A stretch of 64,000 nt of DNA from assembly GCF_002878395.1 (NCBI RefSeq), contig NC_061114.1, forward strand, positions 145,513,931 through 145,577,930, read 5' to 3'. Shown here piece by piece: positions 1 through 64,000 of the stretch. The translations under genes and the position numbers were made by a program. Source of the stretch: Capsicum annuum. Its lineage: Eukaryota > Streptophyta > Magnoliopsida > Solanales > Solanaceae. Numbering within the stretch: position 1 is the stretch's first letter; each line of letters opens with the position of its first letter. Below the pieces are notes generated by a model that was not told where the DNA came from, ran no database searches, and was given only the letters and a program-made list of their open reading frames with translations.

Positions 1-1
1 T

Positions 2-187
2 CCAGTTGAAATCCTAGACTATAATACTCATAGATTGAGGAACAATAAAGTCCCTCTAGTTAAATTTCTTTGGAAAAATCAGTCCGTCGAGGGAGCTACT
101 TGGGAAGCAGAAGTACTTATGCGTACCAAGTACCCTCACCTTTTCCCTGCCATCTCAGATCAAGCTCAAGGTAATAGTTCTCCTTAA
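2..187 (+). pseudogene. M0: chromodomain-like C-terminus of gypsy polyprotein (cut by window edge)
   Basis: The last 61 codons of a monomer, open from the window edge to the natural stop (TAA 185-187). Residues read LDYNTHRLRNNKVPLVKFLW followed by KNQSVEGATWEAE and KYPHLFP, the group-II chromodomain-like tail seen in Tekay/Del-type polyproteins. In the family this domain is thought to direct integration to heterochromatin. The upstream integrase lies outside the window. No frameshift is visible in this piece, but the monomer is presumably dead like its neighbours. Confidence 0.8.
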
Positions 188-1063
188 GCTTACTTAGTTT
201 CATATTTAGTGTGCATCACTAACTTAGTATACCATGATAATCTTGGTATCAAGTACCACCACATATTCAGTCATGCATTCATGTATCAGATCAGTTATAT
301 AGTTATGCATTAGTCATTCATTCTCATTTTGTGAAAATTTAGTTCTTTAGAACTTTCAGTTATGCATTTATGCATCAGTTACGCAAGCATCAGATATGCA
401 TGTTCAGTATGTTATGTTCAACTTGTCAGTAATGTCCGTCATGAGATCATATTCCTATTATTCATGGTTAGCTCATTGTTTCCCCCCTCAGTTAGTCTCA
501 TTCGAGGACGAATGTTCTCAAGGGGGAGATATGATAATACCTGTACTTTTTCTTAGCTTGAAAATCACCTTAAGGATGTTAAACTTGATTTGAAATAATA
601 ATTCATTATTATACACGGGGTATTTCCATAATTTTCTCATTTTATCACATAGGAAATTGAATTATATTTCCATCAATATATATATTTCCTGCAAATCCGA
701 CACCCGGGCAAAAAGTTTGGTCCTTTTCAGTGAAACAGTGTTTGACCTGAGCCTTCAGCACATCACGGAGATATCTCAAATAGAAATTGTCAATTTCTTG
801 TGTTTCTCTATGATACTGGCGCATCACGCAAAACTTCTAGGTTATTGACAAGGCGGCAACGCGATAGCTTTGCGTCGTGCCACCATGAAATTTTTTATTT
901 GTCAAATTCTAGTAACTTGGCAGATGGTGGCACGTTGCACCAAGGGCCCAATTCAAGAAATTGTACTAAAAATTAAATAATGTGTGCATGGTTAAAATTT
1001 CAATTTTCCACCATTATATAAGCTTCCATAGAAGGGATTTAGCCCTTATTCATTCAAAATATT
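188..1063 (+). repeat. U1: 3' UTR, PPT and truncated LTR before M1
   Basis: Polypurine tract AGGGGGAGAT at 521-530. The LTR edge at 532 reads TGATAATACC, one of the few copies with TG. TATATAAG lies at 1015-1022. The 3' UTR carries the paired ATGCAT block (305-410) and the GTTCTTTAGAAC hairpin-like element near 342-353. No G-box survives (ACACGGGG at 613). Confidence 0.82.
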
Positions 1064-2128
1064 GATGTTTTTCCAAAAACTTGTCATCAGCCTGATTTTG
1101 TTATGGTCATTATAGACAGGATGTCCAAATCAACTCATTTTCTTCTGGTTCATAACTCTTATTCAGTTGAGGATTATTCCAGAGTCAATATTAAGGAGTT
1201 GGTCATATTGAACGGTGTTTCGTTATCTGTTATTTCAGGCAGACGTACCCAATTCACCTCTTATTTTTGGAAAGTATTCCAAAAGGGTCTTGGTACCAAA
1301 ATTCATCTCAGTACTTCCTTTCATCCTCAAATAGAAGGTGAAACAGAAAGGACCATTCAGACAATAGAAGATATACTACGGGCATGTTCAATTAATTTCA
1401 AGGAAAGTTGATATGACCATTTTCCTTTGATTGAGTTTTGATACAATAGTAGCTATCATTCCAGTATTTAGATGGCTCCATTCAAAGCTCTCTATGGTAG
1501 TAGATATAGATCTACGATTGGTTGGTTAGAAGTTAGTGAGGCCTCAGTCATAGGGCCTGACTTGGCATACGATACCTTAGGGAAAGTCCAGTTTATCAGA
1601 GAAAGACTCTGATCTGCTGAGTACTGATAAAAGTCTTATGCATATATTCATAGAAAAGATCTCAAGCTTTAGATTGGTGATCATTTCTACTTAAATATCT
1701 CTCCTATGAAGGGAGTGAAGAGATTCGGCAAAAAGGGAAAACTCAGTCCCCGATATATTAGTCCCTTTAAGATTCTTAGTCATTTTGGCAAGGTACCTTA
1801 TGAGCTCGAATTGCCTTCAAATCTAGCCTCAGTTTATCCAGTCTTTTATGTCTCTTTGCTCAAGAAGTAATGAGGTGACCCATCAAACGTAGTCTCTATT
1901 CAAAGCATCGATGTTCAGAACAACCTCTCTTATGTGGAGATTCCAGTCGAAATCCTAGACTATTATACTCATAGATTGAGGAATAAAAAAGTCTCTCTAG
2001 ATAAATTTATTTGGCAAAATTAGACCGTTGAGGGTGCTACTTCGGATGTAGAAGAACTTATGCGTACCAAGTACCTTTACCTTTTTCCCGCCAACCCAGA
2101 TCAAGCTCAAGGTAATAGTTCTCCTTAA
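1064..2128 (+). pseudogene. M1: broken integrase/chromodomain fragment
   Basis: Starts at the array junction in the frame that leads into the integrase core. The frame is open 1103-1411: the first catalytic Asp is present in IIDRMSK, the second-Asp site reads SGRRTQF (Gly), and the Glu is kept in GETERTIQ. A TGA at 1409-1411 replaces the conserved Trp of the GSW motif. Several CAG/CGA-type codons downstream have become TAG/TGA (for example at the tract before ATGGCTCC near 1470). The GPY/F-like part (KKGKLSPRY near 1730) and the tail remain recognisable to TAA 2126-2128. It shares with M2 the unusual VHNS and RRT variants, so the two are local duplicates. Confidence 0.85.
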
Positions 2129-3002: not shown

Positions 3003-4066
3003 GATGTTTTTCCTCGAACTCATCATCAGCATGATTTAGTTTGGGTCATTGTAGACAAGATGTTCAAATCAACTCATTTTCTTCAAGTTCATAACTCTTG
3101 TTTAGTCGAGGATTATGCCAGACTCAATATAAAGAGTTGGTCATATTGCACGGTGTTTCCTTATCTATTATCTCAGCTAGACGTACCCGATTCACCTCTC
3201 ATTTTTCAAAAAGATTCCAAAAGGGTCTTGCTACCCAAATTCTTCTCAGTACTGCCTTTAATCCTCAAACTAATGGTCGACCAGAAAGGACCATTCATAC
3301 ATTAAAAGATATGCTAAGGGCATGTTCAAGTGATTTCAAGGGAAGTTGGGATGACCACTTGCCTATGATTGACTTTGCATCAAACAACAACTATCATTCC
3401 AGTGTTCAGATGGCTCCATTTGAAACTCTCTATGGTAGGAGACATAGATCTCTGATTAGTTGGTTTGAAGTTAGTGAGGACTCTATCATAGGGCCTGACT
3501 TGGTATTCGATGCATTAAGGAAAATCCAGTTGTTCAGATACAGACTCTGAGTTGTTAAACGCCGATAGAATTCTTATTCAGATTTTCGTAGAAAAGATCT
3601 CGAGTTTTAGATTGGTGATAATATCTGCTTAAATATCTCTCCTATGAAGGGAGTGAAGAGATTCGGCAAGAAGGAAAAACTCAGTCCCCGATATATTGGT
3701 CCCTTCAAGATTCTCAATCATTTCGGCAAGGTAGATTATGAGCTCGAATTGCCTTCAAATCAAGCCTCAGTTCATCCAGTCTTTCATGTCTCTTTGCTCA
3801 AGAAGTTCTTAGGTGACCCATCAGTGATAGTCCCTATTCAGAGAGTCGATGTTCAGAATAACCTCTCTTATGTAAAGATCCCAGTCGAAAGCCTAGACTA
3901 TCATCCTCATAGATTTAGGAACTAAGAAGTCCCTCTAGTTAAATGTCTTTGGCAAAATCAGTCCATCAAGGGAGCTACTTAGGAAGCAGAAGCAGTTATG
4001 TGTACCAAGTACCCTCACCTCTTCCCCGCGAACTCAGATCAAGCTCAAGGTTATAGTTCTGCTTAA
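3003..4066 (+). pseudogene. M2: broken integrase/chromodomain fragment
   Basis: In frame from the junction through VDKMFKSTHFL. A 1-nt deletion near 3133 (AAGAGTTGG where others read AAGGAGTTGG) shifts the frame. The shifted frame is open 3098-3550 and covers SARRTRF (Ala at the second catalytic site), PERTIH with its Glu, and FETLYGRR. TGA 3548-3550 ends it. The GPY/F-like part is open 3644-3925 ([13 protein letters not shown]) and stops where AACAAA became AACTAA. The Trp codon before EAE is TAG (near 3980). Confidence 0.85.
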
Positions 4067-4921
4067 GCTTACACAGTTTCATAATTAGTGTGCATCACTA
4101 ACTTAGTATACCATAATAATCTCGGTATCAAGTACCACCACATATTCAGTAATGCATTCATGTATCAGATCAGTTATATAGTTATGCATTAGACATGCAT
4201 TCTCATTATGTGAAAACTTAGTTCTTCAGATCTTTCAGTTATGCATTTATGAATCAGTTACGCAAGCATTAGATATGCATGTTCAGTATGTTATGTTCAT
4301 CTTTTCAGTAATGTCCGTCATGTGATCATGTTCCAGTTATTCCAATTTAGCTCATTGTTTCCCCTATAAGTTAGTCTCATTCGAGGACGAATGTTCTCAA
4401 GGGGGAGATATCGTAATCTCGTGCTTTTTCCTATCTTGAAAATCATCTAAACAATTTTAGAAATTTCATTGAAATAAGAATTCACTATAATACTCGTGGA
4501 ATTTCCAAAATTTTCTTATTCTATCATATGGAAAATTGAATATGCTTTCCATCGATATATATTTTACCTAAATTCGACACCCAGGCGAAGAGTTAGATCC
4601 TTTTTAGTGAGGCCATGTCTGACCTCAGCCTTCAGCGTGTCGTGGAGATAGTTCAAATGGCAATGGTCAATTTCCAGTGTTGCTCCATGATACTGGCATT
4701 GCAGAAAACTTTCAGGTCGTAGACAAGGTGGCAACATGGTAGCTCAGCGTCACGCCATCGTGAAATATCTTATTTATCAATTTCCAGTGACTTAGTGTGA
4801 AAAGGGCCTAATTTGGAAAATTTTATAAAAAAATAAATTTTCTGTCCAGGGTTAAAATGGTCAATTTCCCCCTATATAAGCTACCAATCCTAGGATTTAA
4901 CCCTTATTTATCAAAAATATT
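4067..4921 (+). repeat. U3: 3' UTR, PPT and truncated LTR before M3
   Basis: Polypurine tract AAGGGGGAGATA 4399-4410, LTR edge CGTAATCTCG at 4412, TATATAAG 4873-4880. About 25 bp next to the conserved CTTGGCGCGAAAGGG region is lost (reads CTTAGTGTGAAAAGGG near 4791). Confidence 0.82.
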
Positions 4922-5987
4922 GAAGTTTTGCCTCAAATGTGTCGTCAACATGATTTAGTTTGTGTCATTGTAGACAGGATGACCAAATTTTCTCATTTCC
5001 TTTCGGTTTATACCTCTTATTCAGTTGAGGATTATGTCAGACTCTACATCAAGAAGTTGGTTAGATTTCACGGTGGTCCCTTATCTATTTTCTCTAACAG
5101 AACTACCCGATTTACCTTTCATTTCTAGAAAGCATTCCAAAAAGGTCTTGCCATTCAAATTCATCTTAGTACAACCTTTTATCTTCAGACAGATGATAAA
5201 GCAAAAAGGACCATTTAGACGTTAGAAAATATGGTAAGGGATGTGTGCAATTTATTTTAAGGGAAGTTGGGATGACCACTTCCCTTTGATTGAGTCTGCA
5301 TACAACAACAACTATCATTCCAGTATTTAGATGGCTCCATATGAAACCCTCTATGGTAGGAGATGTAGATCTCTAATTGGTTGGTTTGAAGTTAGAGAGG
5401 CCTCAGTCGTAGGGCCTGACTTGGTATTCGACGCCTTAAGGAAAGTCCATTTAATCAGAGTTAAACTTTGGGCTGCTGAGAGATTATACAATTCTTATGC
5501 AGATGTTCATAGAAAAGATCTCAAGTTCAAGATTGGTGATCATGTCTACCTCAATATCTCTCCTATGAAGGTAGTGAATAGATTCAGCAAGAAGGGAAAA
5601 CTTAGTCCCCAATATATTGGTCTCTTCAAAATTCTCATTCGTTTCATCAAGGTAGCTTATAAGCTCGAATTGCCTTCAGATCTACCCTTTGTTCATCCAG
5701 TCTTTCATGTCTCTTTGCTCAATAAGTGCATAGGTAACCCCTTAGTTGTAGTCCCTATTCAGAGCATCGATGTTCATATTACACTCTTTAATAACGAGAC
5801 TCCTGTTAAAATCCTGGACTATCATACTCATATATTTATGAACAAAGAAGTCCCTCTAGTAAACGTTCTTTGGAAAAATCAGCCCGTCGGGGGAGCTTCT
5901 TGGGAAGCAGAAGTAGATATGCGTACCAAGTACCCTCAGCTTTTCCCTACCAACTCAGATGAATCTCAAGGTAATAATTCTCCTTAA
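4922..5987 (+). pseudogene. M3: integrase/chromodomain fragment with 218-codon open 3' part
   Basis: Open 4928-5128 from the junction (VDRMTKFSHF, then SNRTTRF with Asn at the second catalytic position), ending at TAG where Trp is conserved. After a frameshift near 5240, the frame is open 5331-5987: FETLYGRR-type segment, IGWFEV, KKGKLSPQYIGLFKIL, and the chromodomain-like tail to the natural stop. This is the longest surviving open frame in the array. It has no obvious promoter, and its start is an internal Met, so it is better read as slow decay than as a gene. Confidence 0.85.
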
Positions 5988-6670: not shown

Positions 6671-7633
6671 TAATAACGCTTAACTTACACCTCAAATAAG
6701 TGCAAGGCGGTCGTCGTCTACATATTTACCCATCTTCGGAGTCGGGGTCGAATCCACAGGGAACAATGTGAGTGGCGATTAACTTTGTTCGAAACTTTAG
6801 CCACAATTTAAATTCAAATAAATAATAAGAAAAGACACAATATGGTTTTTTATCAATCAAACAAATTTTAACGTTTCAACTTATTTTAGAACTCAAAACT
6901 TAGATTTCAATATTTCTAATCAATGATATAGAGAAACTAGGGTGGTGATCACTATGACTATTAATATCTATTGAATAATAACTATTCATGATTTTTGTGA
7001 TAGGTGGGAACAACAGATTATCCCTGCCGATGATACTATCTGACTTATCTCTGGACCTCACCAGACAATTTATTATCTAATTCTCTCAAACTTAGATAAC
7101 TTATCTATTTCCAACCATATGTTATCTCAGGTAGATTGATCCAGTTACGGTATCAATCATTAAATAGAAGGTTGGTAGCTTCTGAGTCCCTGTTGATAAT
7201 ACACGACCTCTAGTCTATTTCTCCATTAGATGCAAATATAACCTAAGGCATAACCTAATGTTTGCAACCAATAGGTTCAAGTTAAAACAACAGAATTTCA
7301 TGATGTTCCCACAATCACTCAAACCCTAATCCAAATATTAAATCAGTGAAATAATAATCATAGATCCCACAACCCTAGTTGTAGGTTTTTAGTTGCTCAT
7401 AAGATAGAAAGAGATAACAAAGATTCAATTCATAACTTAAAGCAAGTGAACTTACAAAAGATGAAATTCGAAGTTTTTTCTCCTTTAACTACAATATGAA
7501 TTTCCAAGAACTAAATCAAAGGATGGAAAATTGAATTTCTAAGTCAAGAGACTAAAGAAAAGTAGAGTCGTCTTTGGAATAAGTTCCAGACGTTCCTAGA
7601 CATCCAAGATGCCCCATGAAACCCTAAAAGTTG

Positions 7634-7642
7634 CTATTTATA
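7634..7642 (-). promoter_or_regulatory. TATA box of element A LTR
   Basis: TATAAATAG on the minus strand, upstream (in sense) of TTTTAGGGTTTCATGGGGC. The other LTR has the same box at 11903-11911. This is the expected promoter position for this element's transcript. Confidence 0.5.
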
Positions 7643-7706
7643 CCTGTACTTTAAGAAAAAATTTGAAATAAAAATTTCAGAATTTTTACTTTTTGTGATG
7701 CCATTT

Positions 7707-7935
7707 GTGATAGGCTATCACAAACCTGACGTCCTCCATGATAGTCTATCACAACCTGACGCCCTCCGTGATAGCCTATCATAAATCTAATGACCATTGT
7801 GATAGCCTATCACAACCTGATGACCTCTGTGATAGCCTATCCCAAACCTGATGGCTTATCACAACATGTTATGAGAAAATATTAAATTTTCTTGTTCTCT
7901 GCCTAAACCTGATGACCTCCGTGATAGCCTATCAC
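7707..7935. repeat. 30-31 bp palindromic minisatellite in element A LTR
   Basis: GTGATAGGCTATCAC-type palindromes (7-bp arms around one base) begin at 7707, 7738, 7768, 7799 and 7829, separated by AAACCTGACGCCCTCC-like spacers, with a further copy at 7921-7935. The same cluster recurs at 11976-12201. Confidence 0.85.
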
Positions 7936-8177
7936 AAAACTGATAGCTTATCACGACATGTCATCAGGAAATCTTCAGAAACTTTTCAAAACTAAATTTC
8001 TTGCATCTTTTCACCAAAAATCATCCTTCTTGATGTAGATTTCATGTATTTCCATGCATCTTGATTTTCGTACAAAATCATAAGAAATATCATCAAAAAA
8101 CACTAGTAGTTACTTAAGAACTTACAATTATATCGAGTTAAAAAGTCTTAAATGTGCTATGAAAATCTAGCACATCA

Positions 8178-8190
8178 ACACCCTAAACTT
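8178..8190 (-). other. Element A polypurine tract
   Basis: Minus strand AAGTTTAGGGTGT immediately before the sense LTR start TGATGTGC. It is a decayed form of the AAGTTTGGGGGTG tract usual in this group (from memory). It primes plus-strand DNA synthesis in the family. Confidence 0.65.
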
Positions 8191-9896
8191 AAAACAATTT
8201 CATATCCTCAAGCAACTACATAACACCATATTACGATGATTAACCAAGAGACACATAAGATACCTAAGACAGTTGATTATCAAGTTTAGCTCAAAACACA
8301 TTGCCTTCTCTATTTTCAATCACCTTAAACCCAATTATGTATATCAATGAAGATCAATAATGTGACCCAAAGGATTCGAGATATGGCATCAATTCAGCAA
8401 CAATAACCATGTATGTACCAATATTACACTATCCAACTCAGTTAACAGCTAGCAATGCATCCGATGTACCCTTATAATAAAGAAGTCCCTTCTCACTCAT
8501 ATATGAACTCAAGCATGTCATTGAGGGGACGATCTAGAGACACTCACTCTCAAAATGAAATTCCAATCAATGCATGTCAAATACCTATGCTTGCCCTTAT
8601 TTTCATTACCAAAGTGTCCAGACAGGTAAGTTAGGATCACTATAGGTCTTTTCTTCGGTTTGTAATGTAGGCTAAGGGCTGGTATGATATTCAATGGCAT
8701 TTAGAGTGACTAAGCCTCCTTGGCACTACCTTAAATTTTGGGGTTCACTCATTAACCTTTTTGTTCTTTTTCTCCTATTCTTGATGAACCATTATTCAGG
8801 ATGGATGTGGCTTTTCTTATTCATTTTTTTCACATCTATTCTTTTCTTATTCTTTTTCCAAAGCACTCTACTTTTTATTCATTTTTTTCTTTTATTCTAC
8901 TATTCGTCGTACTCATTTTACATCATGCACGCCTATGATATCCACCCTCAACTTAGGTTGTTTTCCTAAGACAAGGTGTATAGTGTCCAAGGAGGACGAG
9001 GGCCAAAATATGTTCATTATGATATAAATGGGAAGGTGATAGGTCTCATAGAAATAAATGGTCAATTCAGGCTCAAAATAGGGATCAAGATATATCATGC
9101 ATAACAGGAAAGGTCATTTAGTCTAAAAGTGGACTAACATCAACAACGTCCTGTAATCGGGAAAGTTCTGGATTTACCAGACAAAGGGAACTAAGTAGTA
9201 TCTCACACACACATGGTACAAAGGTGCATCACAAGATACTACCTATCCGGTTCGTACAATTATTTAGCAGTTGCTATCATGTCACTAGTATTAATGCCAT
9301 AACAAGATGCACAGTGGTCACACATAAATGTATGTCACAAAGTTATAAAACTGACCAATGGGGAGGTGTTTATCAGTCTCAAAAATCATCAAAAATATGT
9401 CAACTATCCTAGATACTTATTTTTCTCCCAATTCACCACAACACATCACAAAACAAAAAAAATACGCCTAAATATGTCGGCTCTACTAGGAACAAGACTT
9501 CGGGGAAAAGAGGCACATAAACAAAAACCCCAGGAGGACATCAACACCCACAAGTAGCCCCACCCTCAACTTAATATCATGCACTATTCCCAACGCGTCA
9601 AATCAAAACAAAAGAGTTAGAAATGTACCTGTGGCACCATGGGTGCAAAGATCTGATGTCAATCATTTAATAATAATACAAACAACAAAATACCTTAGGT
9701 TGCCTCCTAAGAAGTGCCTAGTTTAACATTGTGGCACGACCTAACTCAGATTTTTTCTCCACCTTGAGGATATGAATTTCACCCCCAACTTAGAGTCCAT
9801 CTTCTTGCCTCACTTATAAGGAGGTGGTACAAAGATTAATAAGCTGAGTAATGAATGATGCATGGTAAACAACTCAACCATAAAGTGAGGTGTGTT
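8191..9896 (-). other. Element A internal region without recognisable genes
   Basis: No protein domain recognised on either strand. It holds a T-rich stretch (about 8751-8930), a CACCCTCAACTTA-like motif recurring near 8943, 9561 and 9781 (polypurine-like on the minus strand), and sequence with many stops. The position (between ORF remnant and 3' LTR) is where a complete element would carry pol, which appears deleted or never present. Confidence 0.6.
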
Positions 9897-10790
9897 TTAA
9901 TATTGTTTATAAAGTGTAAAATAAAGAATATAGGATTCTTGTTCCTCATGTTCACAGTTTTCCACTAGTTTAGATGATTCCACAGACAAGATATCATCTA
10001 AACATAATGTGGAAAAATGCTTCTAGTGTGGCCCAACAAATCCTATGTCAAAATTTACACTATCCTCTACATACTCACTTTTATTCATCTTCTCAACATT
10101 GTCTCTTTGAATTGGGCTAGAGTCTTCATAAGAGATTGGTTGGGCTACTTCTTTTTCCTCTAGCACTATTCCCTGAATCTTGTCATCATCCCTCATAGTT
10201 GGTTTGGTTGGTTGGGAAATCTCCAAGGGTTGATCAACATTAAGCTAATCATTAGTATAGGAATATTTCTCTTCATCGTCACACTCTTCCATTATTTTAA
10301 ATGATTTCACAAACAAGATATCATCTAAACATAATGTAGAAAAGTGTTTTGGATGATTGACCTCGATATCTATCTCTTCTATCCTTTCTCTTCCCTCATT
10401 AAATGCCCTAATGTCTTGACGTATGTCACATATGGTATCATTCATTCTATCTATATGATCCAACATTAGTTAAAGCATAACTTCAATGTCACTCTTTCCA
10501 GTGCTTCGGTCTTTCTTTTCTTGACCATAAGACCTGTCATACCCATAAGAAGAACTAGAACCTGGGTTAGCGCAATAGGGGGAAGGGGCATTTAGGCAAT
10601 CACTCCAATGTCCATCTTGACCGCCACAGAAAGAACAATTATACTCCAAGTAGGCTGAAGATGGTGCACACCTATCTCTCCAAGGATAATATTTACAATC
10701 TTGCCAAAAGTGAGGTCCATCAAAATATGAACATGGATCATCAAGAAATGATTTCCAACCACTAAACTCATGTTCATTCCAAGATGCCAT
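9897..10790 (-). pseudogene. Element A broken gag-like ORF with zinc-knuckle-like motif
   Basis: One minus-strand frame from ATG 10790 to TAA 9897-9899 (298 codons) interrupted by three stops (TAA 10470-10472, TAG 10245-10247, TAG 10023-10025). Residues 1-106 begin MASWNEHEFSGWKSFL and contain C52-x2-C55-x5-H61-x3-C65, close to but not the standard C-x2-C-x4-H-x4-C retroviral knuckle. The following part is acidic (EECDDEEKY). A ~60 bp segment encoding KHFSTLCLDDIL is duplicated (9961-10023 and 10288-10349), the second copy lying past the third stop. The ORF starts ~130 bp after the primer site, where gag is expected. I do not recognise a named family. Confidence 0.6.
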
Positions 10791-10918
10791 AGTAATTAGA
10801 AAATTAGAATAAATATCTACCTAACACAAGAAATAATAGAAAACTAAAAACAAATATTTACAAGTTTGAATTCAAGCAAAAAGGATAAAATTCCAAATCA
10901 ACTCAATACATCAAATTG

Positions 10919-10937
10919 TTCCCCAACAACGGCGCCA
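10919..10937 (-). other. Element A primer binding site (tRNA-Asp type)
   Basis: Minus strand TGGCGCCGTTGTTGGGGAA, four bases inside the LTR end TGATAACG (10942). It complements the 3' end of plant tRNA-Asp with about two mismatches. This is the minus-strand primer site and fixes the element's orientation. Confidence 0.85.
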
Positions 10938-10941
10938 TTTT

Positions 10942-12207
10942 TGATAACGTTCAACTTACACCTCAAATAAGTGTAAGAAAGCCGTCGTCAATATACTTAC
11001 CCAACTTCGGAGTCGGGGTCGAATACATAGGGAACAATGTGAGTGGCAATTAAACTAGTTCGAAACTAAAGCTACAAGTTAAATTCAAATAAATAATAAG
11101 AAAAGACAAAATAGAGGTTTTTATCAATCAAACAAATTCTAATGTTTCAACTTATTTTAGAACTCAAAATTTATATTTCAATATTTTGAATCAATGATAT
11201 ACAGAAACTAGGGTTGTGATCACTATGACTATTATTCTCTATTGAATAATAAATGTTCATGATTATCGTGATAGGTGGGAACCACATATTATCCCTGTCG
11301 GGGATACTATCTGGCTTGTCTGTCGACCTCATTAGAAAATTTATTATCTAATTCTCTCAAACTTAGATAACTTATCTATTTCCAACCGGATGTTATCTCA
11401 AGTAATCGATCCAGTTATGGCATCAATCATTAAACAGAAGGTTGGTAGCTTCTGAGTCCCTATTGATAATCTATGACCTCTAGTCTATTTCTCCATTAGA
11501 AGCAAATAAAACCTAAGGCATAACCTACTATTTACAACCAATAGATTCAACTTAAAACAACTTAATTTCAAGACGTTCTAACAATCACTCAAACTCTAAT
11601 CCAACTATTAAATAAATTAAATAATAATCATAGATCCCACAAACCTAGTTCGGGGTTTTTAGTTGCTCATAAGATAGATAGAGATAACAAAAATTGAATT
11701 CATAACTCAAGAAAGTGAACTTACAAAAGATGAAATTCAAAGTTGTTTCTCCTTCAAGTACAATAAGAATTTCCCACAACTAAATCAAAGGATAGAAAAT
11801 TGAATTTCTAAGTTAAGAGACTAAAGAAAAGTACAGTCATCTTTGGAATAAGTTCCAGATGTTCCTAGATGTCCAAGATGCCCCATGTAACCCTAAAAGT
11901 TTCTATTTATACACGTACTTTAAGAAAAAATTCGAAATAAAAATTTCAGAATTTTTACTTTTCCTGACGCCATTTGTGATAGGCTATCACAAACCTGATG
12001 CCCTCTGTGATAGCCTATTACAACCTGACACCTTCCGTGATAACCTATCACAAAACTGACGACCTCCATGATAGCCTATCACAACCTGACAACCTCCATG
12101 ATATCCTATCACAAAGTTGACGGCTTATCACAACATGTCAGAAAATCATCAATTTTCTTGTTCTCTACCTAAACATGATGACCTTCGTGATTGCCTATCA
12201 CAAAACT
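10942..12207 (-). repeat. Element A 5' LTR (truncated at sense 5' end)
   Basis: Direct repeat of 6671-7943. It matches the left LTR until CTATCACAAAACT, then jumps to host monomer sequence, so about 235 bp including the sense start is missing. TATA box TATAAATAG (minus) 11903-11911. Confidence 0.85.
11976..12201. repeat. Palindromic minisatellite, second LTR of element A
   Basis: GTGATAGGCTATCAC at 11976-11990, with related copies from about 12007, 12037, 12068 and 12098, and a last one at 12187-12201. Period 30-31 bp. Two copies read CCATGATA..CTATCAC, so the palindromes are decaying at CpG. Confidence 0.8.
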
Positions 12208-12235
12208 TATTTAACCCTTATTCATAAAAAATATT
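12208..12235 (+). repeat. Resumption of the array LTR after element A
   Basis: TTATTTAACCCTTATTC, equivalent to the last ~30 bp of other monomers' LTR just before the fusion junction. The TATA-bearing segment is deleted. Confidence 0.7.
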
Positions 12236-14622: not shown

Positions 14623-15105
14623 TGATGATAGGCGAAATTACGCGCCTATATCAATATATTTTGCCCATATTTTAGCCTAGTTTCGAGAACTAATTATCTA
14701 TTTCGTACACTTTTAGTCCTTTTTCCTGTAAATGAGCTAACAAATGTGATTAGGAAAGTTTCAGGTATAAATGATGCAAAATACAGCAATTTATGGCTTA
14801 CTTGACGCAAAAGAAAGCTCACAAACGAGATGGAAAGGAGCTGGACGCATAAAGGACTAAATCTGCTGCATGGAAAATCTGTCCCGGGCTAAAACAGCAT
14901 TTCTGAAGACTTTGGGACTTACAGACACAAAGCTGGATTTTTGCCATAATACATTAACCTAGTGCAATTAGGTTATGTGTTTCATCATTCTATTTGGATT
15001 ATAATTTTGTAACCTTACCCTAGTACAATTGGGTCAAGGATTTCATTAGTATATTAGGATTTGGTTATTTATTTTATTAGTTTAGTAGGAGTAGGATAGG
15101 AGTAT

Positions 15106-15113
15106 TATAAATA
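15106..15113 (+). promoter_or_regulatory. TATA box of solo LTR D
   Basis: TATAAATA followed by CCCTATC in a GGAGTATTA context, about 480 bp into the LTR. It could drive read-through transcription into the downstream half of M5. Confidence 0.5.
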
Positions 15114-15489
15114 CCCTATCATGTTAGAGATTTTAGAGAGGAGGGGAGACATTCTGACAATTCATTCATCTCCTTACAATTAAGACATCTTCCTACAACC
15201 CATTCTCAATTCTTCATTCTTCTACTCTTAAATTCCACAACAAGAGAATCGTTACTTGCTACGGAATCACTAAAACCACACGCCAAACACCTACTATTCA
15301 CGCCATCCACCATGCAAAACGTGATATCCTTCGCATTCATGGGTAACTAAATCTCTTAGTTGGGGTTATGGAAGCCGAATGAGTTACTATCTATAGCTAT
15401 GAGTTTGTGAGTTCAAGACAAGTATATTGCTTATATCATTATTCTCTTCATCTTAAATCTACATTCTTTGCGGTTCAAACACAAGAACA

Positions 15490-15625
15490 CGCCATTCTAA
15501 CATCTAACCTGTTCGAGAGAAAGGTTATTTGTCTAGAAAAGAAGACGCATAGACCAACGCCAGTCTAACATCTGACTTGTTCGAGAGAAAAGTTATTTGT
15601 CTGGAAAAGAGATAATGTCAAGGTA
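15490..15625. repeat. 68-bp tandem duplication inside element D
   Basis: CGCCATTCTAACATCTAACC at 15490 and CGCCAGTCTAACATCTGACT at 15558 begin two copies sharing TTCGAGAGAAA and TTATTTGTCT. Confidence 0.75.
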
Positions 15626-16709
15626 GTAGGACACCCTTTCCTATTAAAAAGCTAGTGCCGTACCTGGACTAACTTCTTGGAGAATTCGTACCGTTAGTCA
15701 CACTTTAAGCTCGAGAGAGTTAAAGTGAAATAGTCCTTGTTTAGGTCGAGAGACGCTTGGATTTACCATCGACTACAATTCTCTATAAGCAATTACATGT
15801 CAAGACTCTACACACTCATAGCCAATAGAGACGTATACCTCAGAAGGTGGACATAACCCCAACGCCTCAATTCTCATTGTTTACAACACACGTGACAATC
15901 TCTCTTTATTTTGCTATTTTCAGTTCTTACATTCTTGTTTTGGTTACATACTACAATCCCCCCTTTCCTACGAGACTTGCACTAAAAGTCTAGTAATTTC
16001 TCTTGCTTGTTGGCCAAGCTATTCTCTGTGGGATCGATACCCAACCCAGGTTGGGTTCTATATTTGCTAACGACCGCTTTACACTCCCACGAGAGCTGTA
16101 GATTGAGCGTTATCAGTTATTGAGGCCTCAGCCATAGGGCCTGACTTGGTATTCGAAGCCTTAGGGAAAGTCCAGTTGATTAAAGAAAGACTTCGGGCTG
16201 TTAAGACCCGATAGAAGTCTTATGCAGATGTTCGTAGAAAAGATCTTGAGTTTCAAATTGGTGATCATGTCTACCTCAACATCTCTCCTATGAAGGGAGT
16301 TAAGAGATTTAGGAAAAAGGGAAATCTCTATCCTTGATATGCTGGTCTCTTCAAGATTCTGAAACATTTCGGCAAGGTAGCTTATGAGCTTAAATTTACT
16401 TCAAATCTACCCTCAGTTCATACAATCTTTCTTATCTCTTTGCTCAAGAAGTTCATAGGTTACCCATCAGTCGTAGTCCCTATTCAGAGCTTCGTTGTTC
16501 GAAATAGCCTCTCTTATGAAGAGATTCCTGTCGAAATCCTAGACTACAATACTCATAGATCGCAGAACCAAAAGCCCTCTAGTTAAAGTTCATTCGCAAA
16601 ATCAGTCCGTCGATGGAGTTACTTAGGATCCAGAAGCAGATATGCATACCAAGTACCCTCACCTTTTCTCGCCAACTCAGATCAAGCTCAAGTTAATAGT
16701 TCTCCTTAA

Positions 16710-39947: not shown

Positions 39948-42352
39948 TGTAATACCCCAAAAAATCCCAATCAATATTACAGCCATGTACCAAGATCATG
40001 CATAGTACATCATGGTTATTTTATAGTTTTATATGTAAGTTAGATGTATATTAAGGCTTCAAATAACTCCCAGGTATCAAGCGAATCAAAACATTCCTTA
40101 CTAATTGAATTCTTGAGAAGGATATTTGTAAAGTCAATTTCAAATGAGTCTATCTCTCATTATACTTTGAATTTTTGAGCTCATGACCTATCAACAGATA
40201 GAGAATTGAATTAGCTTTTCAATGATACCAATTTTTCCTAAATCTGAAATCAGACCAAAGAGTTATTCCTATTTTACTCCAGCATGTCAATCTGAAAATA
40301 GTGTGATGACATTCGTTGTAGCTTACCACATTTGTGACGCCCTATCACGAAGGTCATTAGCCTTAGGAAGAAACTAGCTCCTAAGTGATGACATTCATGG
40401 TAGCTTGCCATACTTTTGACGCCATGTCACAAAGCTCATCAGCCTTAGGCCGAATCCAGCTTCTGTGTGACGATATTTTTGACAACTTACCACATTTTTG
40501 ATGCCATGCCAAAAATGTCATCAGCCTTAGGCAGAATCCATCTTTTGTGTGATGACATTTTTGATGGCTTACCATATTTTTGATGCCTTGTCACAAATAT
40601 TGTTAGCTATTATTTTCAGCAACTGGGAATTTATTTCATAAGGGTATTTTTGTCTTTTCTCTTCACTTCCCATTACTTATAACCCTAAAGAGGCATAATT
40701 TATCCCATTTTTCTTCAGTTAAGCATCTCAAAAACCCTCTATTATGCTCTCAACCACAGGATCAGGATTTTCATCAAACTCATCTCTCAAAAGCAAGATT
40801 CAAGTCTTTTTCCAAGATAATCAAGAATTAAGTTTCCAAATCCAAGAACTCTCAAGCAAATCATCAAGGTTTCCTTTCTAAGGTATCTGTAGTGTTCATT
40901 TATTGATCCAATCCGTTCATAGAACTCAAGAACCATGTTTTAAATATTATTTTGTAAACTTTTTATGGTGATATGAGTATGTACATGTTGATGGCTGTTG
41001 TTTAAGTTTCAAGATGATATCAAAAGGTGTTTCCATGGAATATATATGGTTGTTAGTTGAAAAACATGAACTTTTGGTGGTTTGATATAATGCAATTATG
41101 AAATCAACCTATGCCTAAAAGAATGCATGCAAGGTGTTTGATAAAATGCCTAGTATGCTAGAAGTTCATATTCACATGATTCCATGATATCTAGATGACA
41201 AGTCCATGTTAGTTATACATTACAATATAAATTCCATGCTATTTATGTGTTGTTATTGTTGTGGTATGAAGCATGTACGATAATGGAGATATGAATTATG
41301 TACACGAAATTTATCCATGCTTTCCATACCATGTTTCAGATGCTTAGCAATTACATGAAGTATAATATCCCCTACTTATGATATTGTGAATTATGGACTC
41401 CAATCTTGTGATCAAGTTATGTCATGTGTGAGTCAGTTTCCTTCTATCGAGTCCTAGGGTATTCATACCTAAAAAATATAGCCGTGTTACTAGATCCATG
41501 TCATGTTATCAAGATACCAAGTCATGCCAAGATCTATAGAATTTAGTCCGTCTTATGACTCCGGAAAACTCAGAAATCTCAGTAGTCTCAGTAGTTCAGT
41601 AATCTCAGTAGTTCAGAAATCTCAGTACTCGGTTAATCTCAGAAATCTTAGTACCCAGTAACTTAGTAATATCTAAAATTCTGTACTCTCAGTAATCTCA
41701 TGAACTCAGTACTCTGTAAGATCAGTAATCCCATAAACTCAGTTAGCTATCAGATATCAGTATTATTCCGTCAGCTATAAAAATTAGCAAACTCAAAATT
41801 AGTTCAGTTCAGTTAATCAGTACAGTCAACTATTCTTGTTCAGTCTATTCAGATGGGAGCAGAAGTTAGTAACGAGTGAACCCAAGGATAGGAACATACC
41901 TACCAGGTTAGGGTGTGATTCTTAGCAGTCATCCTTCTATTCCAGAACTACGTAGCCAGCGTAGGTTGAGCAATCTTAGCCTATCAGATTAGGGTTGATG
42001 AGGTGTCTTAACCTGTCAGTTTAGAGTCCTACCATTCTCACCTAAAGTACCTTCTAGATAAGGGTCACTCATAGCTTGACCTTACCAGTGGCGAGATATT
42101 GACACCCTTATAGTTGGGGCAGAGATTGGACCCCAACTTAGCTATATTCTCTTAATTAGGGAATCTCGGTTAGATGAATACATCTCACAGTTTTAATTAT
42201 AGATTCAGGACTGTCAGATACAGTCAATTTAGTTCAGTTGTGCAGATTCTATACTGTTAGATAAAGTCAATGCTTATCAATTATAAATAGACTTCATGAC
42301 CACCCATTAGCTAAAATTGATCTCAACTCTGATTAATCAGTATCAGAATAAT
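39948..42352 (+). repeat. Element B 3' LTR (truncated)
   Basis: Starts TGTAATACCCCAAAAAATCC and follows the 5' LTR closely until TATCAGAAT near 42349 (equivalent to about 36013), then switches to array 3' UTR (TTACCATGATAG). About 1.0 kb of its 3' end is missing. 82-bp repeats at 40303-40610. TATA-like TTATAA at 40677-40682. Confidence 0.83.
40303..40610. repeat. 82-bp tandem repeats in element B 3' LTR
   Basis: Same family as 33963-34270 (GTGATGACATTC..., CAGCCTTAGGCAGAATCC). Individual units align in order with those of the 5' LTR, so the repeat expansion predates this insertion. Confidence 0.85.
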
Positions 42353-43170
42353 TATTACCATGATAGTTATGGTATCAAGTACCGCCGCATATTCAATCCT
42401 TCTTTCATGTATCAAATTAATTGTATAGTTAGGCATCAGACATGGATTCTCATTGTGAGAAAACTTAGTTCTTCAAAACATTCAATTATGCATTTAAGAA
42501 ATTACTCACACATGCATCAGATATATATGTTCAGTAATTTATGTTCATCTTCTCAGTCACGTCCGTCATGTGATCATGTTCTAGTTATTCATGTTTAGCT
42601 CATTGTTTTCCTCTCAATCAGTCTCATTCGAGGACGAATGTTCTCAAGGGGGAGATACCGTAATACCCGTGCTTTTTCTTAGCTTAAAAATTATCTCAAG
42701 GATGTTAGAACTTTCTTTAAAATAAGAATTCATTCTTATACTCATGGTATTTCCATAATTTTCTACTCCTATCATGTGGGAAATTTAATAACCTTTCCAT
42801 CAATAGATAAGTCACCCAAATTCGACACCCGAGCAAAGAGTTAGGTCCTTTTTAGTAAGACAGTCTCGGACCTGAGCCTTAAGCGCGTCGCGGAGATAGC
42901 TCAAATGGAAATGGCAAATTTCCAGTGTTTCTATATGATACTAGCGTGTCACACCAAACTTCTAGGTTGTAGACAAGGTGGTAATGCATAGCTTCGCGTC
43001 GCTCCGCCATAAAATTTCTCATTTGTCAATTTCCAGTGACTTGGCGTGAAAGGGCCCAATTTGGGAAATTTTACTAAGACTTAAATTATGTGTCCAGGGT
43101 TAAAAAGGGTTAATTTTACCCTATATAAGCTTCCAAACCCGGGATTTAGCTGTTATTCATCCAAAATACT
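42353..43170 (+). repeat. U15: 3' UTR remainder, PPT and truncated LTR before M15
   Basis: The 3' UTR resumes at TTACCATGATAGTTATGG after element B. Polypurine tract CAAGGGGGAGAT about 42645-42656, LTR edge CGTAATACCCG at 42659, TATATAAG 43122-43129. Confidence 0.82.
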
Positions 43171-46091: not shown

Positions 46092-47298
46092 TTATATGCC
46101 TAAATTACACCTCTCTTACTAAAGAGTAAGCGGTCGCTGTCAAATATAGAACCCAGCCAGGTTGGGTGTCGAATCCCACAGGGAATACTGTGTTACTAAG
46201 TATTGTAGTTGTTACTGGACTATTGGTCAGTGGTTCCTGAATGGGGGGATTTGGTTTAAATTTGAAATGATAGTTACAATATAAAAATAAAGCAATATGT
46301 GTATTAATATTTGACCACAGAGAACGACAAGTTAGGGTTATGTCCACCTTGTAGCTTTTACTTCTCTATTAACTATAAGTAATAAGGATTTATACATTTA
46401 TGCACTTATAGAGAGATGTATTCTAATTCTAAATCCAAGTGTTTCTCAACTATCAAGGATTTATTCACCTTAGTTCTCTCGAATCCAAAGTGTACAACCA
46501 ATCATACGAACTCTCTAAGTAGTTAATCCTGCTAAGGCATTAACGTGTAAAATAGAGGTTGGAAACCCTATTTTCTTGTGACTACTCTCTTTTCCAAACA
46601 TTAACTTTTCTATCAAACAAGTTATTGCTATAATGGCATATTACCCATGTTTGCAACCATGAGAATTCAATCATAACGGAGAAAGTAATTATATAAGTGA
46701 ATTAACACATCATAAATTCAAAATCCCATAGCAATAGAGAGTATACTACAAGGTTTCCATAACCCTAACAAATAAACTTACCTAATCATGAGTAAAATGG
46801 AAATCACAATAGAAATATTCATCATACCAAAACTCAGAACGATTTTGGTGGAGAAGATGAATAGTGAAAATAAGAGAGAAAAATGTTTCTCTCTCTTTCT
46901 CCTTAAGCTAAGCCACTTTCTCTTGCTTTCAAAATAATACAGAATGTTCAATAATCCCTAAAAATTCAGCCATAAGGCTTTTAATAACATCCTTCTCTAA
47001 TAAATTGCCACTGCATCCTTAACTATTTAAAAATATTGAGTTTGCCTACGAAATAGTTCTCATATATCACATTCAGTGCAAAAGCTGATTTCCTTTTATG
47101 TGAAGTTTCCTTTTCAATCCACAGGTCCCCAAAGTGTCGTAATCTTTCTCATCAGTACCTGAAAAGCATGCTAATCACATAGGTCAGCTCACTTAACTAA
47201 AAATAGACAAAGTGCAAGAATTATGTATTTTATCCTCAAAACTTCGCTAAAACATGGGTAAGTTATGGTGCTTAGATGTATAAATATGCCCAACATCA
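46092..47298 (-). mobile_element. Element C: solo LTR (Tat/Athila-like)
   Basis: 1207 bp on the minus strand. The sense start TGATGTTGGGCATATTTATAC aligns with the starts of D and A (TGATG). The sense end, read on +, is TTATATGCCTAAATTACACC...GCGGTCGCTGTCAAATATAG followed by GGTCGAATCCCACAGGG, homologous to A and D over the GCGGTCG...CACAGGGAA block. No internal region or second LTR is present and the array resumes with matching flanks, so it is a solo LTR. The small minus-strand frame at 46105-46347 has no recognisable product. Confidence 0.83.
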
Positions 47299-61319: not shown

Positions 61320-61734
61320 GCTTACTCAGTTTCTTGATTAGTGTACATCACTAAATAGTATACCATGATAATCATTGTAGCAAGTACCACTGTATATTCA
61401 GTCATGCATTATTGTATCAGATCGGTTATAGAGTTATACATCAGACATGTATTCTCATTGTGAGAAAACTTAATTCTTCAGAACTTTCAGTTATGCATTT
61501 ATGAATCAATTACGCATACATCAGATATGCATGTTTAGTATGTTATGTTCATCTTGTCAGTAACGTTCACCATGAAATCATGTTCTAGTTATTCATGTTC
61601 AACTCATCATTTTCCCTCTCAATCAGTCTAATTCGAGGATGAATGTTCTTAAGAGGGAGATATCATAATATCCGTGCTTTCATGCTTTTTCATAGCTTGA
61701 AAATCATCTGCAGGATGTTAAAACTTGCTTTGTA
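61320..61734 (+). repeat. U25: 3' UTR, PPT and ~60 bp of LTR
   Basis: Polypurine tract TAAGAGGGAGATAT, LTR edge CATAATATCCG at 61674, small duplication CTTTCATGCTTTTTC, then a cut at TTGCTTTGTAATAC where integrase sequence begins. Confidence 0.8.
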
Positions 61735-62422
61735 ATACAACAACAGTTATCATTCCAGTACTAAGTAGGCTCAATTCGAAGCTCTCTATGGTAGGATATG
61801 TAGATCTCTGATTGGAAGATTTGAAGTTAGTGAGGCCTCAGTCTTAGGGATTGACTTGGTATTTGATGCCTCAGGGAATTTCCAGTTGATCAGAGAAAGA
61901 CTTCGGGCTGTTGAGAGGCGATAGAAGTCTTATGCAGATGTTCAGAGGAAAGATCTTGAGTTTGATATTGGTGATCATGTCTACCTCCATATCTCTCCTA
62001 TGAAGGGAGTGAAGAGATTCGGCAAGAAGGGAAAACTCAATCCCGGATATGTTGGTCCCTTTAAGATACTCAGTCATTTCGACAAGGTATCTTATTAGTT
62101 TGAATTGCCTTCAAATCTAGCTTTAGTTCATCCAGTCTTTGATGTCTCTTTGCTCAAGAAGTGCATAGGTAACCATTCATTCGTAGCCCCTATTTGGAGC
62201 ATTGATATTCAGAACAGCCTCACTTATGAAGAGATTCCAGTCGAAATCCTAGACTATCATACTCGTTGATTGATGAACAAAAAAGTTCCTCTAGTTAAAT
62301 TTCTTTGGTGAAATCAGTCCATTGAGGGAGCTACATGGGAAGCATAAGCAGATATGCGTACCAAGTACCCTCACCTTTTCCTAGACAACTTAGATCAAGC
62401 TCAAGGTAATAGTTCTCCTTAA
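61735..62422 (+). pseudogene. M25: 5'-truncated monomer starting in the NNSYHSS segment
   Basis: Begins ACAACAACAGTTATCATTCC. Covers FEALYGR, WF-segment variant GRFEVSEAS, LEFDIGDHVYLHISPMKG, KKGKLNPGYVGPFKIL, then TAG at AYE (CTTATTAGTTTG). The tail ends at TAA 62420-62422 with Trp to TGA at GGTGAAATC. Its join to the LTR differs from that of M24 (about 170 bp further upstream in the integrase), so the two short forms arose separately. Confidence 0.82.
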
Positions 62423-63278
62423 GCTTACTCAGTTTCATGATTAGTGTGCATCACTAACTAAGTATACCATTATAATCTTGTTATCAATTACCACCGTATA
62501 TTCAGTTAACCATTCATGTATCAGGTCAGTTACATAGTTATGCCTCAGACATGCATTCTAATTGTGAGAAAACTTAGTTCTTTCAAAACTTTAAGTTATG
62601 CATATATGAACCAGTTACGCATGCATCAGATATGCATGTTCTGTATGTTATATTCATCTTGTCAGTCACATCCATCATAAGATAATGTTCCAATTATTTA
62701 TGTTTAGCTTATTGTTTTCCCTCTCAGTCAGTCTCATTCGAGGACTAATGTTCTCAAGGTGGATATATCGTAATACCCGTGCTTTTTCTTAGCTTTAAAA
62801 TAATATCAAGGATGTTAGAACTTTCTTTGAAATAATAATTCATTCCTATTCACATGGTTTTTCCATAATTTTCTATCCTATTATATGGGAAATTAAATAA
62901 GCTTTCTGTCGATATATAATTCATCCAAATTCGATACTCGGGTAAAGAGTTAGGTCTTTTTTAGTGAGACAGTGTCTAACCTTAGCCTTCAGAGTGTCGC
63001 TGATATAGCTCAAATGGAAATTGTGAATTTCCAGCATTGCTCCGCGATACTGGTATGTCACGCTAAACTTCCATGTCATAGAGAAGGTGGTAATGCAATA
63101 TCTCTGCGTTGCGCCACAGAGAAATTTCTCATTTGTCAATTTCTAGTGACTTGGCGGGAAAGGGCCCAATTTGGGAAATTTTAATGAAAATTAAATTACT
63201 TTTTCATGATTAAAAAGGTAAATTTGCCCCTGTATAAGCTTCCAAACCCGGGATTTAGCCTTTATTCATCCAAATATT
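62423..63278 (+). repeat. U26: 3' UTR, PPT and truncated LTR before M26
   Basis: Polypurine tract CAAGGTGGATATAT, LTR edge CGTAATACCCG at 62769, promoter motif TGTATAAG (63231-63238). The U3 is open on both strands (62972-63184 +, 62921-63139 -). Confidence 0.82.
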
Positions 63279-64000
63279 GATGTTTTGCCTCAAACTCATC
63301 ATCAGCATAATTTAGTTTGGGTCATTGGGAACAGGATGACCGAATCTGCTCATTTACTTCTGGTTCATACCTCCTATTCACTTGAGGATTATGCTAGACT
63401 TTACATCAAGGAGTTGGTGTGATTTTACGGTGTCAAACAGAGGTACCCGGTTGACCTCTCATTTCTGGAAAGCATTCAAGAAGGATCTATGTACCCAAAT
63501 TCATCTCGTTACAACCTTTCATCCACGGATAGATGGTCAAGCAGAAAGGACCATTCAGACGTTAGAAGATATGCTAAGGGCATGTGAAATTTATTTCAAG
63601 GGATGTTGGGATGACTACTTGGCTTTGATTGAATTTGTATTTAACAACAGCTATCATTCTAGTATTCTGATGGCTCCATCGAAGATCTCTATGGTAGGAG
63701 ATGTAGATCTCCAATTGGTTGGTTCAAATTTAGTGAGGCCTCTATCACAGAGCCTGACTTTGTATTCGACGCCTTAGCGAAAGTCCAGTTGATCAGAGAA
63801 AGAATTTGGGCTGTTGAGAGCCGAAAGAAGTCTTTTGTAGATATTTATAGGAAATATCTCGAGTTTGAGATTGGTGATCTTTTCTACCTCAAGATCTCTC
63901 CTATGAAAAGAATGACGAGATTTGGCAAGAAGGGAAAACTTAGTCCCTAATAAGTTGGTCCGTTCAAGATTAATAGTCGTTTTGACAAGGTAGCTTATGA
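63279..64000 (+). pseudogene. M26: broken integrase fragment, runs off the window
   Basis: The first-Asp segment reads VIGNRMTESAHLLLV (Asp to Asn). TGA at GGTGTGATTT. About 16 bp before the second site is missing (GGTGTCAAACAGAGG). Open 63382-63777: SNRGTRLTSHFWKAF (Asn), [16 protein letters not shown] with the Glu, and FKGCWDD. A lost base in GGCTCCATCGAAG then shifts the frame. LEFEIGDLFYLKI and KKGKLSP follow to the window end. Confidence 0.85.

What the first reader, a model, noticed from the sequence alone, without database searches (positions are those of the whole stretch)
1..64000. A whole 64 kb window is one satellite-like array made from a fragment of a Ty3/gypsy retrotransposon
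About 27 head-to-tail copies of a ~1.9 kb unit, each consisting of integrase core to stop, 3' UTR, polypurine tract and a 5' piece of LTR, all on one strand with near-constant spacing (1.91-1.94 kb where intact). This is neither nested insertion nor a tandem LTR-element array with full internal regions. It is a long-monomer satellite born from a retroelement fragment and easily mis-annotated as many separate gypsy polyproteins.
Basis: seen in the sequence. Interest (0 to 1): 0.88.

Follow-up and report, generated by a model that had tools for sequence, protein, structure and literature searches.

The report
One retrotransposon insertion grown into satellite
A single jumping-gene insertion in a plant chromosome (probably pepper) has grown in place into a roughly 225-kilobase ladder of about 90 copies of one of its own fragments, and the locus still shows how a satellite repeat can be born from a mobile element.

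Summary
47.7 of 64 kb (24.8 monomer equivalents) is a head-to-tail, one-strand array of a ~1.92-kb unit: integrase after its first D, SH3 and chromodomain-like end, 3'UTR, polypurine tract, then the first ~0.5 kb of an LTR. Most of the rest is four insertions. Units are ~18% diverged; 84 unit boundaries (21 in the window) carry the same LTR-to-integrase junction. The host genome shows more. The array runs 225 kb (~92 equivalents). Its left edge is an LTR 5' end; at its right edge the last LTR reads through the junction into a full LTR, primer-binding-like site, pol remains and a truncated 3' LTR. The whole 235 kb has one 5-bp target duplication, AAGAC, and a paralogous empty site ~9 kb away aligns without a gap at the join. 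So one Ty3/gypsy insertion became a tandem element, lost most of one internal region, and expanded in place early, then largely froze (star-like tree). Single-insertion LTR tandems and LTR-derived satellites are both published; their link preserved at one locus is the new part. A genome-wide search for other loci with the junction did not complete.

The parts
1..64000 (+). Middle part of the tandem array; 37 unit chunks, 47.7 kb of unit DNA, interrupted by four insertions
   Evidence: array extends on both sides to C4:145,431,669-145,656,237
3009..4927 (+). One representative unit, from the LTR~integrase junction to the next junction (used as search query with a few flanking bases)
   Evidence: dispersed copies match from query base 9 = window 3008/3009
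3009..4063 (+). Integrase-derived part of that unit (core after the first D, SH3_Tf2-1, chromodomain-like end, stop; decayed, frameshifted; end approximate)
   Evidence: sequence; PF24626 in 6 of 8 window ORF pieces, Chromo in 1 of 8 below cut-off
4064..4401 (+). 3' UTR part of that unit (start approximate)
   Evidence: position between stop and polypurine tract
4402..4412 (+). Polypurine tract GGGGGAGATAT
   Evidence: 67 matches with at most one mismatch in the array span
4413..4927 (+). First ~0.5 kb of the LTR, ending ~55 bp past the TATA box, joined there to integrase
1061..1076 (+). Example of the shared LTR~integrase junction (one of 21 in the window that pass the test)
   Evidence: (23 of 24 contexts printed show it; at 25089 a deletion removed it)
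6673..12210 (+). Insertion I1: nested LTR element, LTRs 6673-7944 and 10944-12210, 88.4% alike; ~150 bp of the unit missing at its flank
14626..16114 (.). Insertion I2 with 9-bp duplication AGTTATTGA
   Evidence: read from the printed ends
33655..42354 (+). Insertion I3: end-truncated related gypsy-type element, LTRs 87.2% alike; its own polypurine tract at 39938; 3'UTR ~70% like the unit's
46095..47297 (.). Insertion I4 with near-duplication ACAACCTTA/ACAAACTTA, inverted relative of I2 (67%)

Best explanation
One ~10-kb Ty3/gypsy element (Tekay/Del-like, tentative) inserted once and made a 5-bp target duplication (shown). It became a tandem LTR-INT-LTR-INT-LTR, most simply by exchange between its two LTRs on sister chromatids (inferred from the LTR shared at the array's right end). 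Illegitimate recombination at short repeats then joined a point just past the first LTR's promoter to the middle of the first integrase gene, deleting the rest of that LTR, gag and most of pol (junction shown, route inferred). The remaining 'LTR start~integrase-UTR-PPT' unit had LTR direct repeats on both sides and multiplied in place to ~90 copies by unequal exchange or non-allelic conversion of blocks of one to several units (inferred from neighbours being closest relatives and from locally recurring deletion variants). Growth came early and was brief, then nearly stopped as copies diverged (inferred from the star-like tree). The units are decayed, non-coding DNA; later insertions broke the array up. 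Confidence: single insertion about 0.95; local expansion by exchange or conversion about 0.7.
For: Left edge is an LTR 5' end preceded by AAGAC, right end is an LTR end followed by AAGAC. Flanks joined with AAGAC once align over 3-793 of 802 at 80.6% to an uninterrupted paralogue at C4:145.4225-145.4233 Mb, with no gap at the join. At the right edge the LTR continues past the junction as in dispersed copies, then a primer-binding-like site and an internal region of sibling length, matching a sibling at 86% in both stretches compared. 84 boundaries share one junction, against 89 unit starts and 87 unit ends counted. Short repeats at the break: TTT shared, TGATG just upstream in both. Terminal branches of units are 87.7% of tree length. 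Nearest relative lies a median of 4 units away against 33.7 when shuffled (79 of 111 within 10); near pairs exceed far pairs by 0.014, shuffled maximum 0.003, in 79 long units. Only 2 of 1924 columns separate units from six siblings, 0 in each of 50 controls. Nested LTR pairs are younger (88.4%, 87.2%) than units.
Against: Units are less alike among themselves (0.805) than to dispersed siblings (0.826), and in the tree the siblings do not separate from the units (smallest clade with all six holds 36 tips); common origin therefore rests on the junction and the duplication, not on the tree. LTR2 against LTR3 (84.1%) is slightly less diverged than units, although insertion must come first. Two of the nearest-neighbour pairs (17/18, 45/46, identity 1.0) are overlapping chunks of the same DNA. 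The tandem stage is seen through one shared LTR only. Two 3-kb N runs and a block on the minus strand lie in the left part. The internal region was compared with a sibling in two stretches, not through the middle.
Confidence: 0.75

Rival explanations
1. The tandem was made before or during integration (cDNA concatemer, read-through of a one-LTR circle, or rolling-circle extrachromosomal DNA) and went in as several units, growing only a little afterwards.
For: A single duplication fits this too; the star-like tree fits many copies made nearly at once. Morales-Diaz et al. 2025 leave both routes open for simple LTR tandems (PMC11899658 Discussion).
Against: Relatedness is local and deletion variants recur side by side, as expected of growth in the chromosome; ~176 kb of units is far beyond a retroelement RNA (general knowledge).
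Confidence: 0.17
2. Each unit is a separate insertion or a nest of insertions of a deleted element.
For: The family is very abundant (16,988 first-look candidates); nested insertions do occur here.
Against: Units have no second LTR end; 84 boundaries share one internal junction; one duplication encloses everything.
Confidence: 0.01
3. An ordinary satellite family with this unit exists at many loci and this is one of its arrays.
For: Only 40 of 16,988 candidates were scored, so other loci could be missed; the junction search did not complete.
Against: The 9 matches in this array start at query base 1; of the 32 elsewhere 30 start at base 9, one at 7, one at 14 (only 8 bases lie beyond the junction). 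Both ends of this array are the ends of one insertion.
Confidence: 0.06
4. Assembly artefact: repeated contigs strung together.
For: N runs, a wrongly turned block with a 47-base contig-end overlap, and two unit pairs near it 92-96% alike, possibly duplicated haplotypes.
Against: Other units differ by ~18%, which no assembler makes from one sequence; N runs are absent from the window and right half.
Confidence: 0.02

Closest known systems
CRM1TR and CRM4TR tandem repeats of maize (Sharma et al. 2013, PMC3648361; abstract, section 5 and passages seen)
   Same: Array of units made of part of an LTR plus adjoining internal sequence of a Ty3/gypsy element, joined at a deletion junction; authors propose deletion inside an element, then conversion; later retrotransposon insertions break the arrays
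   Different: CRM elements in (peri)centromeres, units of ~0.7-0.8 kb (CRM1TR) from LTR and UTR, more than one locus; 'target site' does not occur in that main text. Here the unit includes integrase coding sequence and the enclosing insertion with its target duplication is intact
Tandem LTR-retrotransposons from single insertions (Morales-Diaz et al. 2025, PMC11899658; abstract, passages and Discussion seen)
   Same: Elements sharing internal LTRs, one target duplication around the whole, gypsy-rich
   Different: The two loci described in the passages have two internal regions; here one internal region lost most of its length and became a ~92-fold unit
Sobo satellite of Solanum bulbocastanum, from Sore1 (listed in review PMC9659126, passages; original paper not held)
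   Same: LTR-element-derived satellite in the same plant family
   Different: Derived from LTR only, per the review table; further details only recalled
Potato centromeric satellites St3-58, St3-238, St18, St3-294 and pea PisTR-A (review table in PMC9659126)
   Same: Satellites derived from gypsy LTR or 3'UTR
   Different: Other parts of the element; in the potato cases several centromeres
Kangaroo KERV megasatellite (title in a reference list and one Discussion sentence)
   Same: LTR-element-derived tandem megasatellite, attributed to LTR-LTR recombination
   Different: Provirus structure retained there; deleted fragment here

Membership tests
Satellite DNA | Long head-to-tail array of one monomer | tested here: met
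   225 kb, ~92 equivalents, one strand apart from a probable scaffold error
Satellite DNA | Homogenised monomers | tested here: not met
   Units ~18-20% apart, star-like tree
Satellite DNA | High genomic abundance or several loci | tested here: inconclusive
   One locus seen; 0 of 32 scored matches elsewhere start before base 7 of the query; junction search unanswered
Tandem LTR-retrotransposon from one insertion | One target duplication around the whole | tested here: met
   AAGAC on both sides and gap-free empty site
Tandem LTR-retrotransposon from one insertion | Internal LTR shared between neighbouring internal regions | tested here: met
   At the right end of the array
Tandem LTR-retrotransposon from one insertion | Full internal regions and full LTRs in each repeat | tested here: not met
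   Units keep ~0.5 of ~2.5 kb LTR and integrase end only
CRM1TR-like LTR-derived tandem repeat | Unit = LTR part joined by a deletion to internal sequence of the same element | tested here: met
   internal part is integrase to PPT, not UTR alone
CRM1TR-like LTR-derived tandem repeat | Parent is a CRM element at a centromere | not tested
   No RT phylogeny, no CENH3 data
Ty3/gypsy element (parent) | RT-RNaseH before integrase, 5-bp duplication, TG..CA LTRs, PBS, PPT | tested here: met
   RVT_1, RNaseH and SH3_Tf2-1 matches; match to Ty3 Gag-Pol 6.2e-30; rve only below cut-off; sibling on C6 10,238 bp, LTRs 2540/2549, duplication GTAAT
Tekay/Del chromovirus lineage | Chromodomain at the integrase C-terminus | tested here: inconclusive
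   Chromo in 1 of 8 window pieces at 20.5 bits, cut-off 25.1; none in 5 sibling pieces; a Capsicum survey reports a chromodomain only in CRM II (passage in PMC7076952)
Tekay/Del chromovirus lineage | Reverse-transcriptase phylogeny | not tested
   none

The most novel reading that the evidence does not exclude
This locus is a preserved intermediate of satellite birth: a single integrase-made insertion that turned into a tandem LTR element and then, in a short burst soon after insertion, into ~90 copies of a promoter-headed deletion derivative, after which divergence froze the array. The burst (star-like tree, almost no founder-specific changes) would mean that retrotransposon-derived satellites can be born in one brief episode at one insertion instead of by slow accretion.
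Probability: 0.45. Interest if true: 0.72.

Novelty: new variant of a known kind. Interest (0 to 1): 0.6.

Why it matters
How retroelements turn into satellites has mostly been argued from unit sequences. Here the two ends of the array, its single target duplication, an empty site, the founder junction and the left-over tandem element lie at one locus, so the proposed steps (insertion, tandem formation, internal deletion, local expansion, freezing) can be checked one by one, for example at the same site in related species. It also shows that kilobase monomers ~18% apart escape a finder limited to 500-bp periods; if the genome is pepper, reports of under 0.01% satellite there (PMC11106260, passage) may not count such arrays (inference).

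Tried and rejected
Separate or nested insertions of each unit: rejected by the shared junction and the single duplication.

Error-prone amplification: units have Ti/Tv 1.12 against 2.03 in six siblings, which suggested a low-fidelity burst. The nested LTR pairs inside the array show the same (1.26 and 1.21), so it is regional or age-related and not tied to amplification; a sibling's LTR pair on C6 has 2.8. The cause stays unexplained.

Codon-position test for units descending from several active elements: no third-position excess in units (class means 0.173, 0.193, 0.207), but none in siblings either (0.094, 0.093, 0.132), so it does not discriminate. Units diverge equally in coding and non-coding parts (0.17-0.21 and 0.18), siblings less in coding (0.09-0.13 and 0.16), with the caveat that siblings were picked by coding similarity.

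Monophyly of units in a tree: not obtained.

Rows dropped: one search dropped 7 of 143 matches as outside the array or inside nested elements; the alignment behind holds 78 of 113 units (at least 1500 bp) and all 6 siblings; one search used 79 units of at least 1400 aligned positions.

First empty-site test had left five LTR bases in the join; it aligned over 1-792 of 800 at 80%, and I repeated it with exact ends.

Rfam on the window: 0 matches. Tandem Repeats Finder: 22 short-period rows, no 1.9-kb row possible.
Full report
WHAT IS THERE. The window is the middle of a tandem array. Successive identical 14-mers are most often 1921 bases apart, and 54 of 50,352 14-mers have a reverse complement in the window. 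nhmmer with one unit finds copies on the + strand. Unit DNA makes 47.7 of 64 kb, 24.8 monomer equivalents; 34 window chunks have mean pairwise identity 0.817. Most of the rest is four insertions: a nested LTR element (6673-12210, LTRs 88.4% alike), a 1.5-kb insert with a 9-bp duplication (14626-16114), an end-truncated related gypsy-type element (33655-42354, LTRs 87.2% alike) and a 1.2-kb insert with a 9-bp near-duplication (46095-47297).

THE UNIT. It begins inside the integrase gene after the first catalytic D (motif recalled) and runs through an SH3_Tf2-1 domain (PF24626 in 6 of 8 ORF pieces, 34.5-74.4 bits, cut-off 30) and a chromodomain-like end (1 of 8, 20.5 bits, below the 25.1 cut-off) to the stop. 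Then come the 3'UTR, the polypurine tract GGGGGAGATAT (67 matches with at most one mismatch in the array span) and the first ~0.5 kb of an LTR, cut ~55 bp past a TATA box: TATATAAG is exact before 49 of 81 plus-strand boundaries and within one mismatch before 74, against 1.2% of 5000 random windows for the exact form. A dispersed sibling's 308-residue piece matches SH3_Tf2-1 (82.6 bits), rve (28.4 bits, below its 32.6 cut-off) and Ty3 Gag-Pol at 6.2e-30. Stops occur in the coding frame in each 120-column stretch examined, and at one integrase codon 59% of the window's copies covering it read stop, so the units are dead as genes.

BEYOND THE WINDOW. The host genome is held (G000, 3.21 Gb in 80,840 contigs, window at C4:145,513,931-145,577,930). 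I read 264 kb including the window. The array covers C4:145,431,669-145,656,237: 113 chunks, 71 with both ends, 176,040 bp of unit DNA or ~92 equivalents. Two 3-kb N runs enclose a minus-strand block in the left part. The block's end, read on the plus sense, repeats the first 47 bases of the next contig, so a scaffolding error is likely.

THE ENDS. The left edge is the first base of an LTR (TGTAAGACC...), preceded by AAGAC. At the right edge the last unit's LTR does not turn into integrase but goes on as in dispersed copies. A 3.76-kb insert with its own duplication (CATAG) interrupts it. The LTR ends at 145,662,026 and a primer-binding-like sequence follows. Then comes an internal region: 939 and 1636 bp of it match a sibling on C6 at 86%, and its length to the integrase point is 3754 against 3745 bp there (my arithmetic; the middle was not compared). 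RNaseH pieces are found in it. A second deletion joins integrase to the middle of a 3' LTR, which ends GGTCGTTAGA at 145,667,019 and is followed by AAGAC. Flanks joined with AAGAC once align over 3-793 of 802 at 80.6% to an uninterrupted paralogue ~9 kb to the left, with no gap at the join. So 235 kb sit in one target site. A whole sibling on C6 measures 10,238 bp, LTRs 2540 and 2549 bp, duplication GTAAT.

THE FOUNDER EVENT. 84 boundaries (21 in the window) pass the test for joining the same LTR point to the same integrase point; 89 unit starts and 87 unit ends were counted in all. Of 24 window contexts printed, 23 show it and one (25089) has lost it by deletion. In six LTR contexts and six sibling integrase contexts read, the native sequence goes on differently. 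Comparing them, the unit keeps TTGATGTTTT from the LTR and TTTGCC from integrase: TTT is shared at the break and TGATG lies just upstream in both, as illegitimate recombination at short repeats would leave (recalled pattern). Of 41 matches scored genome-wide, the 9 in the array start at query base 1; of the 32 elsewhere 30 start at base 9, one at 7, one at 14. Only 8 query bases lie beyond the junction, and 40 of 16,988 candidates were scored, so this is a modest test.

GROWTH. Units are on average 10.1% away from the column majority, six siblings 6.3% from theirs. Units are 0.805 alike among themselves, 0.826 to siblings, siblings 0.860 among themselves. Terminal branches of 78 units are 87.7% of the tree, and 26 of 81 nodes have support above 0.9: most copies were made over a short time long ago. 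Only 2 of 1924 columns separate units from siblings (0 in each of 50 random-unit controls), so the founder had hardly changed before it multiplied; for the same reason the tree does not separate siblings from units. Relatedness is local: the nearest relative lies a median of 4 units away (79 of 111 within 10) against 33.7 when shuffled, lowest of 1000 shuffles 22. Two of those pairs, identity 1.0, are overlapping chunks of the same DNA. In 79 long units, which exclude them, near pairs average 0.819 and far pairs 0.805, shuffled maximum difference 0.003, and it holds without pairs above 0.85. Some blocks were duplicated later (units 43-44 and 53-54, 50-51 and 54-55, 65 and 68, 109 and 111), and deletion variants recur near each other (177/561 in four units, about 1700/1798 in three). 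Unequal exchange or non-allelic conversion would leave this.

TIMING. With Jukes-Cantor on the identities and a recalled rate of 1.3e-8, units date to roughly 8, LTR2 against LTR3 (84.1%, 1055 sites) to 7, and the nested elements to about 5 million years. These are rough, and the first two are not in the expected order. A passage in PMC7076952 cites splits of 1.14 and 1.74 million years among three cultivated peppers and 19.6 from Solanum, so peppers should share the array.

COMPARISON. Sharma et al. 2013 proposed for maize that deletions in an element make an LTR-UTR~LTR founder which conversion expands (abstract, section 5, passages). Morales-Diaz et al. 2025 showed tandem LTR elements from single insertions with one duplication and left the route open (abstract, passages, Discussion). 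Reviews list other LTR- and UTR-derived satellites, including Sobo in a Solanum (passages; the Sobo paper is not held). In nine answered library searches (listings) I saw no title or abstract start reporting a satellite-scale array inside one target duplication; the library lacks most subscription journals, so this is weak. The pepper T2T paper reports satellites under 0.01% and centromeres without high-copy tandem repeats (passages). Tekay/Del is reported as the main gypsy lineage of C. annuum and C. chinense, with elements of 8.1-8.9 kb and a chromodomain only in CRM II (passages); neither fits the sibling here exactly, so the lineage name is tentative.

SHOWN AND INFERRED. Shown: array, unit, common junction, single duplication, empty site, read-through into a full LTR and internal region, star-like tree, local relatedness. 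Inferred: tandem stage by LTR exchange, deletion at short repeats, expansion by unequal exchange or conversion, early burst, host. Not tested: other loci, other species, expression, chromatin, centromere position, lineage by RT phylogeny.

Noticed in passing
window 14626-16114 and 46095-47297: Two inserts with 9-bp (near-)duplications that are inverted relatives of each other at 67%; 9-bp duplications suggest Mutator-like elements (recalled).
   Followed up: partly
window 33655-42354: Related gypsy-type element with both ends truncated, a short internal region of ~2.9 kb and its own primer-binding-like site and polypurine tract; perhaps non-autonomous.
   Followed up: partly
window 6673-12210: Nested LTR element whose insertion is accompanied by loss of ~150 bp of the unit; no clear target duplication.
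   Followed up: partly
array units and nested LTR pairs: Low transition/transversion ratio (1.1-1.3) in units and nested copies against 2-2.8 in dispersed siblings; cause unknown.
   Followed up: partly
G000:C4:145641506-145654304 (outside the window): Four units share one ~385-bp deletion (unit positions 177-561) and partly alternate with undeleted units, a higher-order-repeat-like pattern.
   Followed up: partly
G000:C4:145443553-145448927 (outside the window): Minus-strand block between two 3-kb N runs with a 47-base contig-end overlap; probably turned wrongly in scaffolding, with two unit pairs 92-96% alike nearby.
   Followed up: partly
window, integrase part of units (core column 584): One integrase codon reads stop in 59% of the window's copies covering it; an old or recurrent change.
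   Followed up: no
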